DNA from: Streptantibioticus silvisoli
Lineage (GTDB): Bacteria > Actinomycetota > Actinomycetes > Streptomycetales > Streptomycetaceae
Reading direction: 5' to 3'
Assembly: GCF_027947535.2 (NCBI RefSeq)
Contig: NZ_JAAGKO020000012.1
Coordinates: forward strand, 1-64,000
DNA: 64,000 bases
Below the pieces are notes generated by a model. It was not told the DNA's origin. It made no database searches and saw only the letters and a list, made by a program, of their open reading frames with translations. This document shows, piece after piece, positions 12,547 to 19,759 of the stretch. The translations under genes were made by a program, and so were the position numbers. Position 1 is the first letter of the stretch; every line of letters starts with the position of its first letter.

Positions 12547-14742
12547 ATGACAGCGACGACCGATGGAAGCGCGGGACCTCGGCGGTCCCGCGCCACCTCG
12601 GCCAGTGAATCGACCGATCCGACTCCCGTCGCCTTCGACCCGAATCATCCTGCCGCAGACGCCAGCCCGCCCACTTCGACCACCGCCCCGAAGGAGCGGA
12701 CCGCGCCGCCCGGGGGACCGCTGCTCGACGGCCCCCTGCTCGACGGCGCCACGTTCGACGCCCTGCTGTCCGACGCTCCCGCGCCCGCCGGACCCGCCCC
12801 CGAGGCTCCCGCGCCCGACGGCGCGGAACCGCTGGAGCGGGTGGCCGCCCGCATCACCGAGCGCGCCACCGCCCGCCTGCTCGCCTCGCAGGACGAGGAG
12901 GGCTGGTGGAAGGGCGACCTGGAGACCAACGTCACCATGGACGCCGAGGACCTGATGCTCCGGGAGTTCCTCGGCATCTCCGACAGCGCCATTCTGGAGG
13001 CGGCCGCCCGCTGGATCCGCGCCCAGCAGCGCGAGGACGGCACCTGGGCCACCTTCCACGGCGGACCCGGAGAGCTGTCCACCACCGTCGAGGCCTACGT
13101 GGCGCTCCGGCTGGCCGGCGACACGCCCGAGGCGCCGCACATGGCGTCCGCCGCGGCCTGGGTGCGCGACCACGGGGGCATCGCCGCCACCCGGGTCTTC
13201 ACCCGCATCTGGCTGGCCCTGTTCGGCTGGTGGAGATGGGAGGACCTGCCGGAACTGCCCCCCGAGGTCATCTACCTGCCCCGCTGGTTCCCGCTGAACA
13301 TCTACTCCTTCGGCCAGTGGGCCCGGCAGACCATCGTGCCGCTCACCGTGGTCGGCGCCCACCGCCCGGTGCGCCCGGCCGCGTTCCGCCTCGACGAGCT
13401 GCACACCGACCCCGCGGTGCCCAACCCGCCCCGGCCGCCCGCCCCGCTGGCCAGCTGGGAGGGGTTCTTCCAGCGGCTGGACAAGGCCCTGCACGTCTAC
13501 CGCAGGTTCAGCATCCGCACCGTGCGCCGCACCGCGCTGGGCCTGTGCGCCCGCTGGATCATCGAGCGCCAGGAGAACGACGGCTGCTGGGGCGGCATCC
13601 AGCCGCCGGCCGTCTACTCGGTCATCGCCCTGCACCTGCTCGGCTACGACATCGACCACCCGGTGATGCGGGCGGGCCTGAAGTCGCTCGACCAGTTCGC
13701 CATCTGGCACGAGGACGGCAGCCGGATGATCGAGGCATGCCAGTCCCCGGTCTGGGACACCTGCCTGGCCGCCATCGCGCTCGCCGACGCCGGCCTGCCC
13801 GCCGACCACCCGGCCCTGGTGAAGGCGGCCGACTGGATGCTCGGCGAGCAGGTGCTGCGGCGCGGCGACTGGTCGGTGCGCCGGCCCGAACTGCCCTCCG
13901 GAGGCTGGGCGTTCGAGTTCCACAACACCAACTACCCGGACATCGACGACACCGCCGAGGTGGTGCTGGCGCTGGCCCGGGTGGACCACCCCGACCCGCA
14001 GCGGATGCGTACCGCGATCGAGCGCGGCGTGGTGTGGAACCTGGGCATGCAGTCCAAGAACGGTGCCTGGGGCGCGTTCGACGTGGACAACACCAGCCGC
14101 TTCCCCAACCTGCTGCCGTTCTGCGACTTCGGCGAGGTCATCGACCCGCCGTCGGCCGACGTGACGGCGCACGTGGTGGAGATGCTGGCCGCCGTCGGCA
14201 TGGAGCACGACCCGCGCACCCGGCGCGGCGTCAGCTGGCTGCTGGCCGAACAGGAGGCCAACGGCGCCTGGTTCGGGCGCTGGGGCGTCAACTACGTCTA
14301 CGGCACCGGCTCGGTGGTGCCCGCGCTGGTGGCGGCCGGGGTGCCGGCCTCCCATCCGGCGATCCGCCGCTCGGTGCGCTGGCTGGCCGACGTGCAGAAC
14401 GCGGACGGCGGCTGGGGCGAGGACCTGCGCTCCTACCCCGAGCAGGAACTGGCCGGGCGCGGCGAATCCACCGCCTCGCAGACCGCCTGGGCGCTGCTGG
14501 CGCTGCTGGCGGCCGGTGAGCGCGACGGCGACGCGGTGGCCCGCGGCATCCGCTGGCTGGCCGACACCCAGTTGGAGGACGGCTCCTGGGACGAGCCGTA
14601 CTTCACCGGCACCGGTTTCCCGTGGGACTTCTCCATCAACTACCACCTGTACCGGATGGTGTTCCCGCTGACCGCGCTGGGCCGCTACCTCCACGGTGAG
14701 GCACCGATGCGGGTGCCGGCACCGCTGGTCGAGGCGGCGTGA
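12547..14742 (+). CDS. shc: Squalene-hopene cyclase
   Basis: Monotopic membrane enzyme that cyclises squalene to hopene and hopanol. The catalytic acid motif DIDDTA is at about 465-470, and several QW repeats (Q-x2-G-x-W type) are visible, for example QREDGTW, QENDGCW, QEANGAW, QNADGGW. 731 residues is longer than the usual 630-680 because of an N-terminal proline/alanine-rich extension of about 95 residues. Start ATG 12547 follows AAGGGGA. A gap of about 100 bp precedes it. The stop overlaps the hpnG ATG by one base. Confidence 0.95.
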   Translation: MTATTDGSAGPRRSRATSASESTDPTPVAFDPNHPAADASPPTSTTAPKERTAPPGGPLLDGPLLDGATFDALLSDAPAPAGPAPEAPAPDGAEPLERVAARITERATARLLASQDEEGWWKGDLETNVTMDAEDLMLREFLGISDSAILEAAARWIRAQQREDGTWATFHGGPGELSTTVEAYVALRLAGDTPEAPHMASAAAWVRDHGGIAATRVFTRIWLALFGWWRWEDLPELPPEVIYLPRWFPLNIYSFGQWARQTIVPLTVVGAHRPVRPAAFRLDELHTDPAVPNPPRPPAPLASWEGFFQRLDKALHVYRRFSIRTVRRTALGLCARWIIERQENDGCWGGIQPPAVYSVIALHLLGYDIDHPVMRAGLKSLDQFAIWHEDGSRMIEACQSPVWDTCLAAIALADAGLPADHPALVKAADWMLGEQVLRRGDWSVRRPELPSGGWAFEFHNTNYPDIDDTAEVVLALARVDHPDPQRMRTAIERGVVWNLGMQSKNGAWGAFDVDNTSRFPNLLPFCDFGEVIDPPSADVTAHVVEMLAAVGMEHDPRTRRGVSWLLAEQEANGAWFGRWGVNYVYGTGSVVPALVAAGVPASHPAIRRSVRWLADVQNADGGWGEDLRSYPEQELAGRGESTASQTAWALLALLAAGERDGDAVARGIRWLADTQLEDGSWDEPYFTGTGFPWDFSINYHLYRMVFPLTALGRYLHGEAPMRVPAPLVEAA

Positions 14743-15416
14743 TGGACCCGTCACCGGGCACGGCGCCCCGGACCCGTCCGGCGGAGCACGCCGGCGCCGC
14801 GGCCGCCCCGGGGCCGCTGCTGGTGGTCTGCGCCCTCGGGGTCGAGCGGTACGCGCTGCGTGCCGCCGACCGCGCGGGCCCGGCGGTCGCGCTGCTGCGG
14901 GCCGGCATGGGACCGCGGCGCGCCGGTGACGCCGTCACCGGCGCGCTGGTGCGCGACGGCCGGCCGGCCGCCGCGGTGCTGGTCACCGGGTTCTGCGCCG
15001 GCCTCGCCCCGGGCGTGCTGCCCGGTGACGTGGTGGTCGACGACCGTTCCGACGCCGCCGCGGTCCTCGCCGCGGCGGCGCGGCACGCCGTCACCCCGGT
15101 GGCCGCCCGCCGCCCGGTGACCGTGCACACCGGCCGCGTCGCCGGCGCCGACCACGTCGTGCGCGGTGCCGAACGGGCCGCGCTGGCCGCGAGCGGCGCG
15201 CTGGCCGTCGACATGGAGTCCGAGGCCGTACGGCTCGCCGCGCTGGCGGTCGGCGACCGGCCGGTGGCCGCCGTCCGCGTGGTGGTCGACACCCCGCAGT
15301 ACGAACTCCTGCGCCCCGCCACCCTCCGCAACGGATACACCGCGTACCGGGTACTGCGCTCCCTGGTGCCGGCCTTCCTCGACTGGCACCGTTCTTCCCA
15401 GCTCCCCTGGAGGTGA
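14742..15416 (+). CDS. hpnG: Hopanoid side-chain nucleoside phosphorylase HpnG
   Basis: Phosphorylase-superfamily enzyme that removes adenine from adenosylhopane to give phosphoribosyl-hopane. Recognisable family landmarks are the N-terminal CALGVER, TGFCAGLAPG, the nucleoside-binding VDMES and a C-terminal FLDWHRS. Length 224 residues is normal. Start ATG 14742 follows directly on the shc stop (TGATG); GTG 14739 is also in frame. Its substrate is produced by HpnH, whose gene next door is badly eroded, so HpnG may be without substrate here. Confidence 0.82.
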   Translation: MDPSPGTAPRTRPAEHAGAAAAPGPLLVVCALGVERYALRAADRAGPAVALLRAGMGPRRAGDAVTGALVRDGRPAAAVLVTGFCAGLAPGVLPGDVVVDDRSDAAAVLAAAARHAVTPVAARRPVTVHTGRVAGADHVVRGAERAALAASGALAVDMESEAVRLAALAVGDRPVAAVRVVVDTPQYELLRPATLRNGYTAYRVLRSLVPAFLDWHRSSQLPWR

Positions 15417-15421
15417 GCCAG

Positions 15422-16282
15422 ATGGCCATGCCGCTTCGCCGGACCGTCCGGGCCGGCGGCTGTCTCCCCGGGCAGCGCGTGCTCGGGCGCCGGGAGAGGC
15501 TCCCGCACCCGGCAGTCGACGGGATCGTCCGCCGGCCGGCCGGGCGCGAGAAGTACGTTCCCCTCTGCACCGACGCCGTGCTGCTGCGCCGGGAACTCGA
15601 CACGTTCACGCCTTCGAGGTATTCCGCCTTGGCCGTCCCCATCGACGGCCCGCGCGAGCGTCACGATGAGTCGGTCGCCGAGGAAGGCGTGTCCGACGAG
15701 ACGGTCGCGGCGATCAAGGAGGCGAAGGCGCGCGCTTTCCGGGTGACCACCCCTTCCCTCTCCTCCACCACCGACACCCCGCCGGCCGTCCTCGACGACG
15801 TCGACGTTGCCGATCTCCTCACCGACGACCCGGCGGTGGGCGAGCCGCTGAACCCGCCCGCCCACGCCCACGAGACGGCACCCGGCCAGGAACACCTCCG
15901 CCGGGCCCGGCAGACCCGCGACCCGTCCAAGAAGGCGGTCGCGGGCGGCAACCGCAAGAAGTGGCGCCTGAACCACAGCCCGCTCCTCCCGGACTTCCCG
16001 GAGGGCAGGGCGGATCTCCCGCGCACCGCGCGGGCGGTCCCGAACCACTCGCTGCTCGGCTGGCAGCGCCCGTGCTATCTGATGAGCGACGGCCACGTGG
16101 CCACGTACCGCGAACTCCTGGAGAAGACCGACGGGGAATCCCCCGGCTGCGGCAAGGACCCGCACTGCGCCAATCGCATGGCGCACCGCGGGGACGAGCC
16201 GACCGCCGTGCCGGCGCCCACGGGGTCCGGCAAGGAGACGCTGCGCGCGGCCCGCGAGACCGTTGTCTCGAATCGAGGCTGA
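15422..16282 (+). CDS. hpnH: Degenerate HpnH-like protein lacking the radical-SAM core
   Basis: Real HpnH is a radical-SAM enzyme (about 340 residues) that attaches 5'-deoxyadenosine to hopene. This frame keeps the family start MAMPLRR, the middle segment IDGPRERHDESVA, NRKKWRLNHSPL and GWQRPCYLMSDG, so homology is clear. Compared with the family as I know it, about 55-60 residues after residue 27 are missing, removing the CxxxCxxC iron-sulfur loop and the following GGEP. The C-terminal cysteines are now arginines (CANRMAHRG where CANCMAHCG is expected). Many conserved phenylalanines have become Pro, Ser or Leu. The frame has no stop, a good ribosome site (GGAGGTGAG before ATG 15422) and normal codon use. 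Likely a pseudo-enzyme or a gene decaying by missense. Confidence 0.8.
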   Translation: MAMPLRRTVRAGGCLPGQRVLGRRERLPHPAVDGIVRRPAGREKYVPLCTDAVLLRRELDTFTPSRYSALAVPIDGPRERHDESVAEEGVSDETVAAIKEAKARAFRVTTPSLSSTTDTPPAVLDDVDVADLLTDDPAVGEPLNPPAHAHETAPGQEHLRRARQTRDPSKKAVAGGNRKKWRLNHSPLLPDFPEGRADLPRTARAVPNHSLLGWQRPCYLMSDGHVATYRELLEKTDGESPGCGKDPHCANRMAHRGDEPTAVPAPTGSGKETLRAARETVVSNRG

Positions 16283-16288
16283 GAACAC

Positions 16289-17464
16289 ATGAGTACGACG
16301 GAGCCTGTTTCACTCGGTATGCCCGCTGTTCCGCTGAAGCTGGCCGAGCGCCGGCGGTCGCGTCAGATCCAGGTGGGGTCGGTGGCGGTGGGTGGGGACG
16401 CGCCGGTGTCGGTGCAGTCGATGACGACGACGGTGACGGCGGACATCGGTGCGACGTTGCAGCAGATCGCGGAGTTGACGGCGTCGGGTTGTCAGATCGT
16501 GCGGGTGGCGTGTCCGTCGCAGGATGACGCGGATGCGTTGGCGACGATTGCGCGGAAGTCGCAGATTCCGGTGATCGCGGATATTCATTTTCAGCCGAAG
16601 TACGTGTTCGCGGCGATTGACGCGGGGTGTGCGGCGGTGCGGGTGAATCCGGGGAACATCCGGCAGTTCGACGACAAGGTGAAGGAGATCGCGCGGGCGG
16701 CGTCGGCGGCGGGGACGCCGATCCGGATCGGGGTGAACGCGGGGTCGCTGGACAGGCGGTTGCTGGAGAAGTACGGGAAGGCGACTCCTGAGGCGTTGGT
16801 GGAGTCGGCGTTGTGGGAGTGCTCGCTGTTCGAGGAGCACGGGTTCCGGGACATCAAGATCTCGGTGAAGCACAACGATCCGGTGGTGATGGTGAATGCC
16901 TATCGGTTGTTGGCGCAGAGGTGTGATTACCCGTTGCATCTGGGGGTGACGGAGGCGGGGCCGGCGTTCCAGGGGACGATCAAGTCGGCGGTGGCGTTCG
17001 GTGCGCTGCTGGCGGAGGGGATCGGGGACACGATCCGGGTGTCGTTGTCGGCGCCTCCGGCGGAGGAGGTGAAGGTGGGCATTCAGATTCTGGAGTCGTT
17101 GAATCTGCGGCAGCGGCGGTTGGAGATCGTGTCGTGTCCGTCGTGCGGTCGGGCGCAGGTGGATGTGTACAAGCTGGCGGATCAGGTGTCGGCGGGGCTG
17201 GACGGTCTGGAGGTTCCGTTGCGGGTGGCGGTGATGGGGTGTGTGGTCAACGGTCCGGGTGAGGCGCGTGAGGCGGATCTGGGGGTGGCCTCGGGCAACG
17301 GCAAGGGGCAGATCTTCGTCAAGGGCGAGGTGATCAAGACGGTGCCGGAGTCGAAGATCGTGGAGACCCTCATCGAGGAGGCGATGAAGATCGCCGAGCG
17401 GATGGAGGCAGCGGGACAGGGCACGGATGACGCGGGGGGAGGGCCGACGGTGACCGTCGCCTGA
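16289..17464 (+). CDS. ispG: 4-hydroxy-3-methylbut-2-enyl diphosphate synthase IspG (flavodoxin-dependent)
   Basis: MEP-pathway iron-sulfur enzyme that converts MEcPP to HMBPP. The N-terminal [18 protein letters not shown] and the C-terminal cluster cysteines in SCPSCGR and [10 protein letters not shown] are intact; 391 residues is standard. It starts seven bases after the hpnH-like frame. From about 16330 to 17285 the codon third positions are dominated by G and T (TTG, GTG, GCG, TCG, GGG) whereas flanking genes use C; the first dozen and last 60 codons return to C-rich use. This suggests a foreign origin or a recombined core. Streptomyces usually has a second, housekeeping ispG elsewhere. 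Confidence 0.95.
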
Positions 17465-17521: not shown

Positions 17522-19759
17522 ATGTCGTTGTTGGAGAGCATCCGGGGCCCGCAGGACCTCAAGGCGCTCGCCCCGGAACGGCTGGAGGAACTCGCCGAGG
17601 AGATCCGCACGTTCCTCATCGACTCCGTGGCCAGGACCGGCGGCCACCTCGGACCCAACCTGGGCGTGGTCGAGCTGACCATCGCCCTGCACCGGGTCTT
17701 CGACTCGCCGAAGGACCGGGTGCTGTTCGACACCGGTCACCAGTCCTACGTCCACAAGATCCTGACGGGCCGTCAGGACTTCTCCAAGCTCCGGGTCAAG
17801 GGCGGCCTGTCCGGCTACCCCTCGCGCGCGGAGTCCGAGCACGACGTCATCGAGAACAGCCACGCCTCCACGGTGCTCGGCTGGGCCGACGGGCTGGCCA
17901 AGGCCAACGAGGTCCTCGGCCGGGACGACCACGTGGTCGCGGTCATCGGCGACGGCGCGCTGACCGGCGGCATGGCCTGGGAGGCGCTGAACAACATCGC
18001 CGCCGCCCGCGACCGGCCGCTGATCATCGTCGTCAACGACAACGAACGCTCCTACGCGCCCACCATCGGCGGCCTCGCCAGCCACCTGGCCACCCTGCGC
18101 ACCACCAACGAGTACGAACGCGTGCTGTCGTGGGGCAAGGAGCTCATCCAGCGCACCCCGGTCGTCGGCCAGCAGCTGTACGAGTCGCTGCACGGCGCCA
18201 AGAAGGGGTTCAAGGACGCCTTCGCCCCGCAGGGCATGTTCGAGGACCTGGGCCTGAAGTACGTGGGCCCGATCGACGGCCACGACACGGCGGCGGTGGA
18301 GGGCGCGCTGCGCGGCGCCAAGCGGTTCCGCGGCCCGGTCCTGGTGCACTGCCTGACGGTCAAGGGCCGCGGGTACGCCGCCGCCGAGCAGGACGAGGCC
18401 GACCGCTTCCACTCGGTCGGCGCCATCGACCCGCTCACCGGCGTCGCGCTGGCCCGGCCGGCGGGCAAGTCGTGGACCTCGGTCTTCGGCGACGCCATGG
18501 TGGAGATCGGCCGCGAGCGTGACGACGTCGTCGCCATCACCGCCGCCATGCTCCAGCCGGTCGGCCTCGGCCCGTTCGCCGCCGAGTTCCCCCAGCGGGT
18601 CTACGACGTGGGCATCGCCGAGCAGCACGCCGCCACCTCCGCGGCCGGCCTGGCCACCGGCGGCCTGCACCCGGTGGTCGCGGTCTACGCCACCTTCCTC
18701 AACCGCGCCTTCGACCAGGTCCTGATGGACGTCGCGCTGCACCGCTGCGGCGTCACCTTCGTGCTGGACCGGGCCGGCATCACCGGCACCGACGGCGCGT
18801 CGCACAACGGCATGTGGGACATGTCGATCCTCCAGGTCGTCCCCGGCCTGCGGATCGCCGCCCCGCGCGACGCCGACCAGCTGCGCGACCAGCTGCGCGA
18901 GGCGGTCGAGGTCGACGACGCGCCCACCGTCGTGCGGTTCCCCAAGGAGACCGTCGGCGAGCCGCTGCCCGCGATCGACCGGGTCGGCGGCATGGACGTG
19001 CTGCACCGCGGCGACCACCCCGACGTGCTGCTGGTCGCCGTCGGCGTGCTCGCGCCGACCTGCCTGACGGTGGCGGAGCTGCTGCGCGACCGCGGCATCG
19101 GCACCACCGTCGTCGACCCGCGCTGGGTCAAGCCGGTCGACCCGGCGCTGCCGGAGCTGGCCGCCGGCCACCGGGTGGTCGCCGTCGTCGAGGACAACGG
19201 CCGGGTCGGCGGGGTCGGCGCCGCCGTCGCCCAGGCGCTGCGCGACGCCGAAGTCGACGTCCCCGTGCGGGACTTCGGCATCCCGCCGCGTTTCCTGCCG
19301 CACGCCAAGCGCGCCGAGGTACTGGCCGACCTCGGCCTGACCCCCGCCGAGATCGCCGCCCGGATCGCCGCCACCGTGCACCGCACCGCCGGCGCGCACC
19401 ACACCGCCGCGGACCCCGCCGCGCCGCCCACGGTGCCGGCCCCCGCCGCCCGCCGGGGCCGCGCTCCCGCGACGGGAACGGCGACGCGGACGGTGACGAA
19501 GACAGCCGCGAAGTCAGCGGCCAGGACGGCGACGAAGACAGCGGCGAAGTCAGCGGGCAAAACGGTGCCGAAGACAGCGCCTGTGCCCACCGCGAAGCCC
19601 GCGGCGGACGCCGGGACGCCCACCGCGCCCGCCGGGCCCGCGACCGCGAAGCCCGCGCCCGCCGAGCCCGCCACCGCGAAGCCCGCGACCCCTGCCAAGC
19701 CCGCAACCACCACCAAGCCCGTGACGAAGAAGGAGACATCCGATGGCCGACGAGCCTGA
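17522..19759 (+). CDS. dxs: 1-deoxy-D-xylulose-5-phosphate synthase with basic C-terminal tail
   Basis: Thiamine-diphosphate enzyme committing pyruvate and glyceraldehyde-3-phosphate to isoprenoids. The N-terminal [11 protein letters not shown]-like segment, GDGALTGG with downstream NDN (TPP/Mg site), and [10 protein letters not shown] (activating Glu) are all present in the first 620 residues. The usual length is about 620-640, but this one has 745. The last ~125 residues are a low-complexity Lys/Ala/Pro/Thr tail with repeated KTAAKSA and AKPA words resembling histone-H1-like tails. Start ATG 17522 follows AAAGGAAG. The end overlaps the next start by 17 nt. Within a hopanoid operon it boosts precursor supply. 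Confidence 0.95.

What the first reader, a model, noticed from the sequence alone, without database searches (positions are those of the whole stretch)
15422..16282. Open but gutted hpnH inside an otherwise complete hopanoid operon
The frame is plainly homologous to HpnH over most of its length but lacks about 55-60 residues containing the CxxxCxxC cluster loop and GGEP, has Cys-to-Arg changes at the C-terminus, and has lost most conserved Phe residues, yet has no stop or frameshift and keeps its ribosome site. Radical-SAM chemistry is impossible. The strain should make hopene/diplopterol but not adenosylhopane or aminotriol unless another hpnH exists. Selection for an uninterrupted frame could come from coupling hpnG translation to ispG.
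Basis: partly seen in the sequence, partly recalled or inferred. Interest (0 to 1): 0.85.

Follow-up and report, generated by a model that had tools for sequence, protein, structure and literature searches.

The report
Dead hopanoid gene beside working spare
In this Streptomyces-family bacterium the hpnH copy inside the hopanoid operon has decayed into an unbroken but useless reading frame, yet an intact second hpnH elsewhere in the same genome probably still does the job, so this is mostly ordinary gene decay rather than a lost pathway.

Summary
Window 15422-16282(+) is an uninterrupted 286-codon relic of HpnH with a clean 58-codon deletion that removes the CxxxCxxC loop and GGEP. Three Cys are now Arg, 14 of 17 consensus Phe are gone, and the Shine-Dalgarno is intact.

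The metabolic reading is not supported. The genome carries a second, intact, standalone HpnH (contig C71, 505 bits, CNLACNGC and GGEP present). Streptomycetaceae have two HpnH types: A, inside the shc operon, and B, standalone. Four sampled genera keep both, several keep only A, and several have an shc operon with no hpnH and only B. This strain is caught losing A while B remains.

Codon positions 1 and 2 of the relic changed 6-9 times faster than in shc, dxs, hpnO or hpnH-B. Changes are mostly A/T to G/C (83 against 13 the other way). Such drift makes few stops (0.95 expected, P(none) 0.39), so the open frame needs no selection against stops.

Incidental: the ispG next door is kept near-identical to a second ispG, as in 7 of 9 relatives tested.

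The parts
15422..16282 (+). decayed operon-type (A) hpnH, 286 codons, open frame
15409..15413 (+). GGAGG Shine-Dalgarno of the relic, same block as in intact orthologs
15505..15506 (+). junction of the in-frame 58-codon (174-nt) deletion that removed the CxxxCxxC loop and GGEP
15790..15816 (+). net +9-nt in-frame insertion (best parsed as +10/-1 against L020)
12547..14742 (+). shc, squalene-hopene cyclase, the only one over the family cut-off in the genome
14739..15416 (+). hpnG, open, fast-evolving
16289..17464 (+). ispG, near-identical to a second copy on contig C58
17522..19759 (+). dxs (a second copy on contig C45)
19743..21155 (+). class-III aminotransferase in the position of hpnO; 79-90% identical to relatives in genera with ispG and dxs in the operon

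Best explanation
This is a pseudogene of the operon-type (A) hpnH that became dispensable because the genome keeps a second, standalone type-B hpnH. Shown: A is decayed and B is intact; relatives hold A only, B only (with an shc operon that has no hpnH) or both; the relic changed 6-9 times faster at codon positions 1 and 2 than neighbouring genes and B on the same branch. Inferred: B supplies adenosylhopane synthase, so HpnG and HpnO still receive substrate and the strain still makes C35 hopanoids. The frame stays open mainly because neutral drift in this lineage turns A/T into G/C and so rarely makes stop codons. Weak selection against frameshifts, to keep ribosomes and transcription moving into ispG-dxs-hpnO, may also act.
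For: Second HpnH at G000:C71, 505 bits, profile 1-317, with CNLACNGC, AGGEP and the Cys of LCTNA. A gene 11 kb from it on C71 has its best relatives 2.5-10 kb from hpnH-B in G005, G027 and G034, so the contig is not a contaminant. A and B both intact in g4, g6, g14 and g17; B only in g2, g3, g5 and g11, whose shc operons go straight from hpnG to ispG or hpnO. The species tree puts G000 next to g17 (SH-aLRT 90), whose A copies have branches of 0-0.01 against 0.6 for the relic. Change at outgroup-invariant sites by codon position: relic 20/18.5/14.2%; shc 3.5/2.1/7.0; dxs 2.2/2.5/7.7; hpnO 3.1/2.2/8.2; hpnH-B 3.0/2.8/6.7. A/T to G/C at 83 of 261 sites, G/C to A/T at 13 of 396; simulated stops 0.95, P(0) 0.39.
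Against: No uncompensated frameshift among roughly 150 substitutions, which pure neutrality does not easily give. Activity of B has not been measured. Both copies have been kept in four genera, so A and B may not be fully interchangeable.
Confidence: 0.85

Rival explanations
1. Translated spacer: the protein is useless but the frame is kept, because broken translation here would stop ribosomes or transcription reaching ispG, dxs and hpnO. Compatible with the best explanation as an added layer.
For: All indels are net in frame. S. ambofaciens wild-type lines gave 9 indels per 147 substitutions (PMC11109965), so about 5-9 would be expected here (hand-scaled), mostly frameshifting. The Shine-Dalgarno is kept.
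Against: Zero stops is not significant (P 0.39). Start and end of the frame are not significantly protected (P 0.06 and 0.47). ispG and dxs both have second copies. In g3 the operon works without any hpnH.
Confidence: 0.4
2. New function: the shortened DUF3463 protein has been recruited for something else and is still under selection.
For: Open frame, ribosome site, DUF3463 still recognisable at 90 bits.
Against: Positions 1 and 2 changed as fast as position 3; G/C sites at the three positions changed at similar low rates in the wide comparison; 69 of 202 near-invariant residues altered, mostly hydrophobic core and Cys.
Confidence: 0.05
3. The strain really has lost C35 hopanoids, because B does something other than make adenosylhopane.
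For: B is only about 72% identical to A and is never beside shc in the loci examined; four genera keep both copies.
Against: B is over the HpnH equivalog cut-off by a wide margin and has the motifs; it is the only HpnH in several shc-positive genera; all B-bearing genomes tested have shc.
Confidence: 0.1
4. Assembly error or contamination produced the relic or the second copy.
For: Draft genome, 130 contigs, 2.88% estimated contamination.
Against: The relic lies inside a 165-kb contig with colinear operon genes; its differences are spread along the whole gene. C71 shares gene linkage with relatives and B branches with g17.
Confidence: 0.02

Closest known systems
HpnH, radical-SAM adenosylhopane synthase (TIGR03470)
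   Same: Operon position between hpnG and ispG, C-terminal DUF3463, about 62-64% identity to intact copies over the retained part
   Different: 58 residues with the FeS and SAM motifs deleted; below the curated cut-off
Bacterial pseudogene of a redundant gene
   Same: Loss of catalytic residues, large deletion, relaxed constraint, intact paralog elsewhere
   Different: No stop and no frameshift; strongly GC-ward substitution spectrum
Differential loss of duplicate genes between lineages
   Same: A and B copies retained in different combinations among Streptomycetaceae genera
   Different: Here one copy is seen part-way through decay

Membership tests
HpnH (window copy) | CxxxCxxC [4Fe-4S] loop | tested here: not met
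   deleted
HpnH (window copy) | GGEP SAM-binding motif | tested here: not met
   deleted
HpnH (window copy) | score over the equivalog cut-off 225.05 | tested here: not met
   211.6 bits
HpnH (window copy) | C-terminal DUF3463 and operon context | tested here: met
HpnH (second copy, contig C71) | cut-off, CxxxCxxC, GGEP, full length | tested here: met
   505 bits, profile 1-317
HpnH (second copy, contig C71) | 5'-deoxyadenosyl transfer to diploptene | not testable with these tools
   needs an enzyme assay or lipid analysis
Pseudogene | relaxed constraint relative to intact orthologs and neighbours | tested here: met
Pseudogene | premature stop or frameshift | tested here: not met
   stops are not expected under the observed spectrum
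Translated spacer kept in frame | fewer frameshifts than neutral drift gives | tested here: inconclusive
   0 seen; about 5-9 indels expected from a published ratio, hand-scaled

The most novel reading that the evidence does not exclude
The relic is a natural assay of neutral base change in a high-GC actinomycete. Free of protein selection, it moves from A/T to G/C about ten times faster per site than the reverse (implied equilibrium about 91% GC), close to the GC3 of its neighbours and well above the roughly 63% computed from a Streptomyces mutation-accumulation spectrum. That would mean GC-richness comes from a position-independent bias such as biased gene conversion, not from codon choice, and that dead genes in such genomes hide as open frames, perhaps helped by weak selection for frame.
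Probability: 0.45. Interest if true: 0.5.

Novelty: new member of a known kind. Interest (0 to 1): 0.3.

Why it matters
It corrects a metabolic prediction: reading hopanoid capacity from the operon alone would call this strain C35-negative. The two-type HpnH pattern (operon A, standalone B) matters for predicting bacteriohopanepolyols, which are used as biomarkers, from genomes. The relic also shows how a gene can be dead without any stop codon in a GC-rich genome, and gives a small test case for the debate on why some bacteria are GC-rich.

Tried and rejected
Loss of NucS mismatch repair as the cause of the A/T-to-G/C spectrum: a NucS homolog is present, and 29% of the relic's A/T-to-G/C changes are transversions, against under 1% in a nucS deletion (PMC11109965). 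Antisense gene: the 550-aa minus-strand frame over hpnG and the relic has no Pfam match. Protection of the frame ends was tested and is not significant. A frameshift-allowing alignment found only one +10/-1 pair against L020; that script then stopped with an error before the second reference. No other relic below the cut-off was noticed in 396 family genomes, but the printed match list was truncated and G000 is the only genome of its genus held, so the search for sister relics is incomplete. No solved HpnH structure was found by sequence; structure prediction was not run because a family alignment would impose the fold on the relic.

Full report
WHAT IS THERE. The frame at 15422-16282(+) is open for 286 codons and lies between hpnG (stop 15414-15416) and ispG (start 16289). 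It matches the HpnH equivalog model only over positions 82-316, at 211.6 bits against a cut-off of 225.05, and hits DUF3463 but not Radical_SAM at cut-off. Against 102 intact operon HpnH proteins it lacks exactly 58 residues, including the CNLKCEGC loop and GGEP, has 69 of 202 near-invariant positions changed, and has lost 14 of 17 consensus Phe. The Shine-Dalgarno block is the same as in intact relatives.

A SECOND, INTACT HpnH. The genome (8.7 Mb, 130 contigs) has one HpnH over the cut-off, at C71:3340-4293(-), 505 bits, profile 1-317. It carries CNLACNGC, AGGEP and the LCTNA cysteine. I take that cysteine to correspond to Cys106, reported to set stereochemistry in HpnH (work cited in PMC12583986); the correspondence is my inference. 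It stands alone, on a different contig from the only squalene-hopene cyclase over the cut-off (window 12547-14742). A phosphatase gene 11 kb from it has its best relatives 2.5-10 kb from hpnH-B in G005, G027 and G034, so the contig belongs to the genome.

TWO TYPES IN THE FAMILY. In Streptomycetaceae, type A (MAMPLRQ..., operon) and type B (MGLPLNL..., standalone) form separate clades. Genera coded g4, g6, g14 and g17 have both intact; g7, g8, g9, g10, g12 and g15 have A only in the genomes; g2, g3, g5 and g11 have B only. In B-only genera shc is present, and where the sequence runs past hpnG the next operon gene found is ispG (g3) or hpnO (g2, g5, g11), with no hpnH between. One genome, G001, has shc and hpnG but no HpnH match. 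G000 has both types, with A decayed. Its nearest relatives in a shc-hpnO-dxs tree are g17 (SH-aLRT 90), where A is intact with branches of 0-0.01 substitutions per site; the relic's branch is 0.6 and B's is 0.058. Among the genomes sampled, A lost its constraint in this lineage, after the split from g17, while B did not.

HOW IT DECAYED. At sites where six close relatives agree, the relic changed at 20, 18.5 and 14.2% of codon positions 1, 2 and 3. shc, dxs, hpnO and hpnH-B changed at 2.1-3.5% of positions 1 and 2 and 6.7-8.2% of position 3 on the same branch. The direction is strongly one-sided: 83 of 261 A/T sites went to G or C, 13 of 396 G/C sites to A or T, an implied equilibrium of about 91% GC, close to the GC3 of neighbouring genes (0.91-0.96; ispG 0.865). 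Constrained genes on the same branch show no such excess at positions 1 and 2 (33/1494 against 40/2002). The wild-type spectrum of S. ambofaciens (PMC11109965) implies about 63%, using a genome GC of 72.2% that I supplied from memory. The relic's bias therefore exceeds the mutational bias measured there; GC-favouring fixation is one possibility. T-to-C exceeds A-to-G (39/121 against 20/140, P = 0.0006), in line with the replication-strand asymmetry that paper reports for nucS mutants.

WHY THE FRAME IS OPEN. Stop codons need A and T. Simulating the relic's own spectrum on an intact relative gives 0.95 stops on average, with none in 39% of runs; a flat spectrum gives 4.4 stops and a mirror-image AT-biased one 6.5. 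So no selection against stops is needed. Frameshifts are different. The published ratio is 9 indels to 147 substitutions, so about 5-9 indels would be expected among roughly 150 substitutions (rough, hand-scaled), and every indel seen is net in frame. Changes are spread evenly along the gene and its ends are not significantly protected. I keep a translated-spacer role open at 0.4.

VERDICT.

NEXT DOOR. The operon ispG and a second ispG on C58 are 99.4% identical over the matched 1029 bases with unrelated flanks. In G003, G005, G009, G025, G029, G034 and G036 the two copies are 98-99.7% identical, against 91% in G032 and 89% in G027. Between G000 and G005, G027, G034 or G009 the same gene is only 81-93% identical. 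This points to repeated gene conversion between the two ispG copies across the family. One literature search found no paper on it.

Noticed in passing
window 16289-17464 and G000:C58:48048-49076 (L172): The two ispG copies are 99.4% identical with unrelated flanks. The same holds (98-99.7%) in 7 of 9 relatives tested while between-genus identity is 81-93%: recurrent gene conversion of ispG.
   Followed up: partly
G001 (g2), L162: shc, hpnG and hpnO present but no HpnH match in a 97% complete genome: a candidate for real loss of C35 hopanoids.
   Followed up: no
G003:C5, L166 3837-4954: Operon ispG of G003 aligns in two overlapping pieces and its HMM match covers only 98-354: it looks frameshifted, while its second ispG matches over the full profile.
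   Followed up: no
window 14739-15416: hpnG scores only 62.5 bits against the HpnG cut-off of 187 and evolves fast on this branch (8-9% change at codon positions 1 and 2), though the gene is open and colinear with relatives.
   Followed up: partly
window 15422-16282: T-to-C changes exceed A-to-G (P = 0.0006), a strand asymmetry that may report replication direction.
   Followed up: no
window 17522-19759 and G000:C45:41176-43017: dxs is also duplicated (operon copy and a second copy).
   Followed up: no
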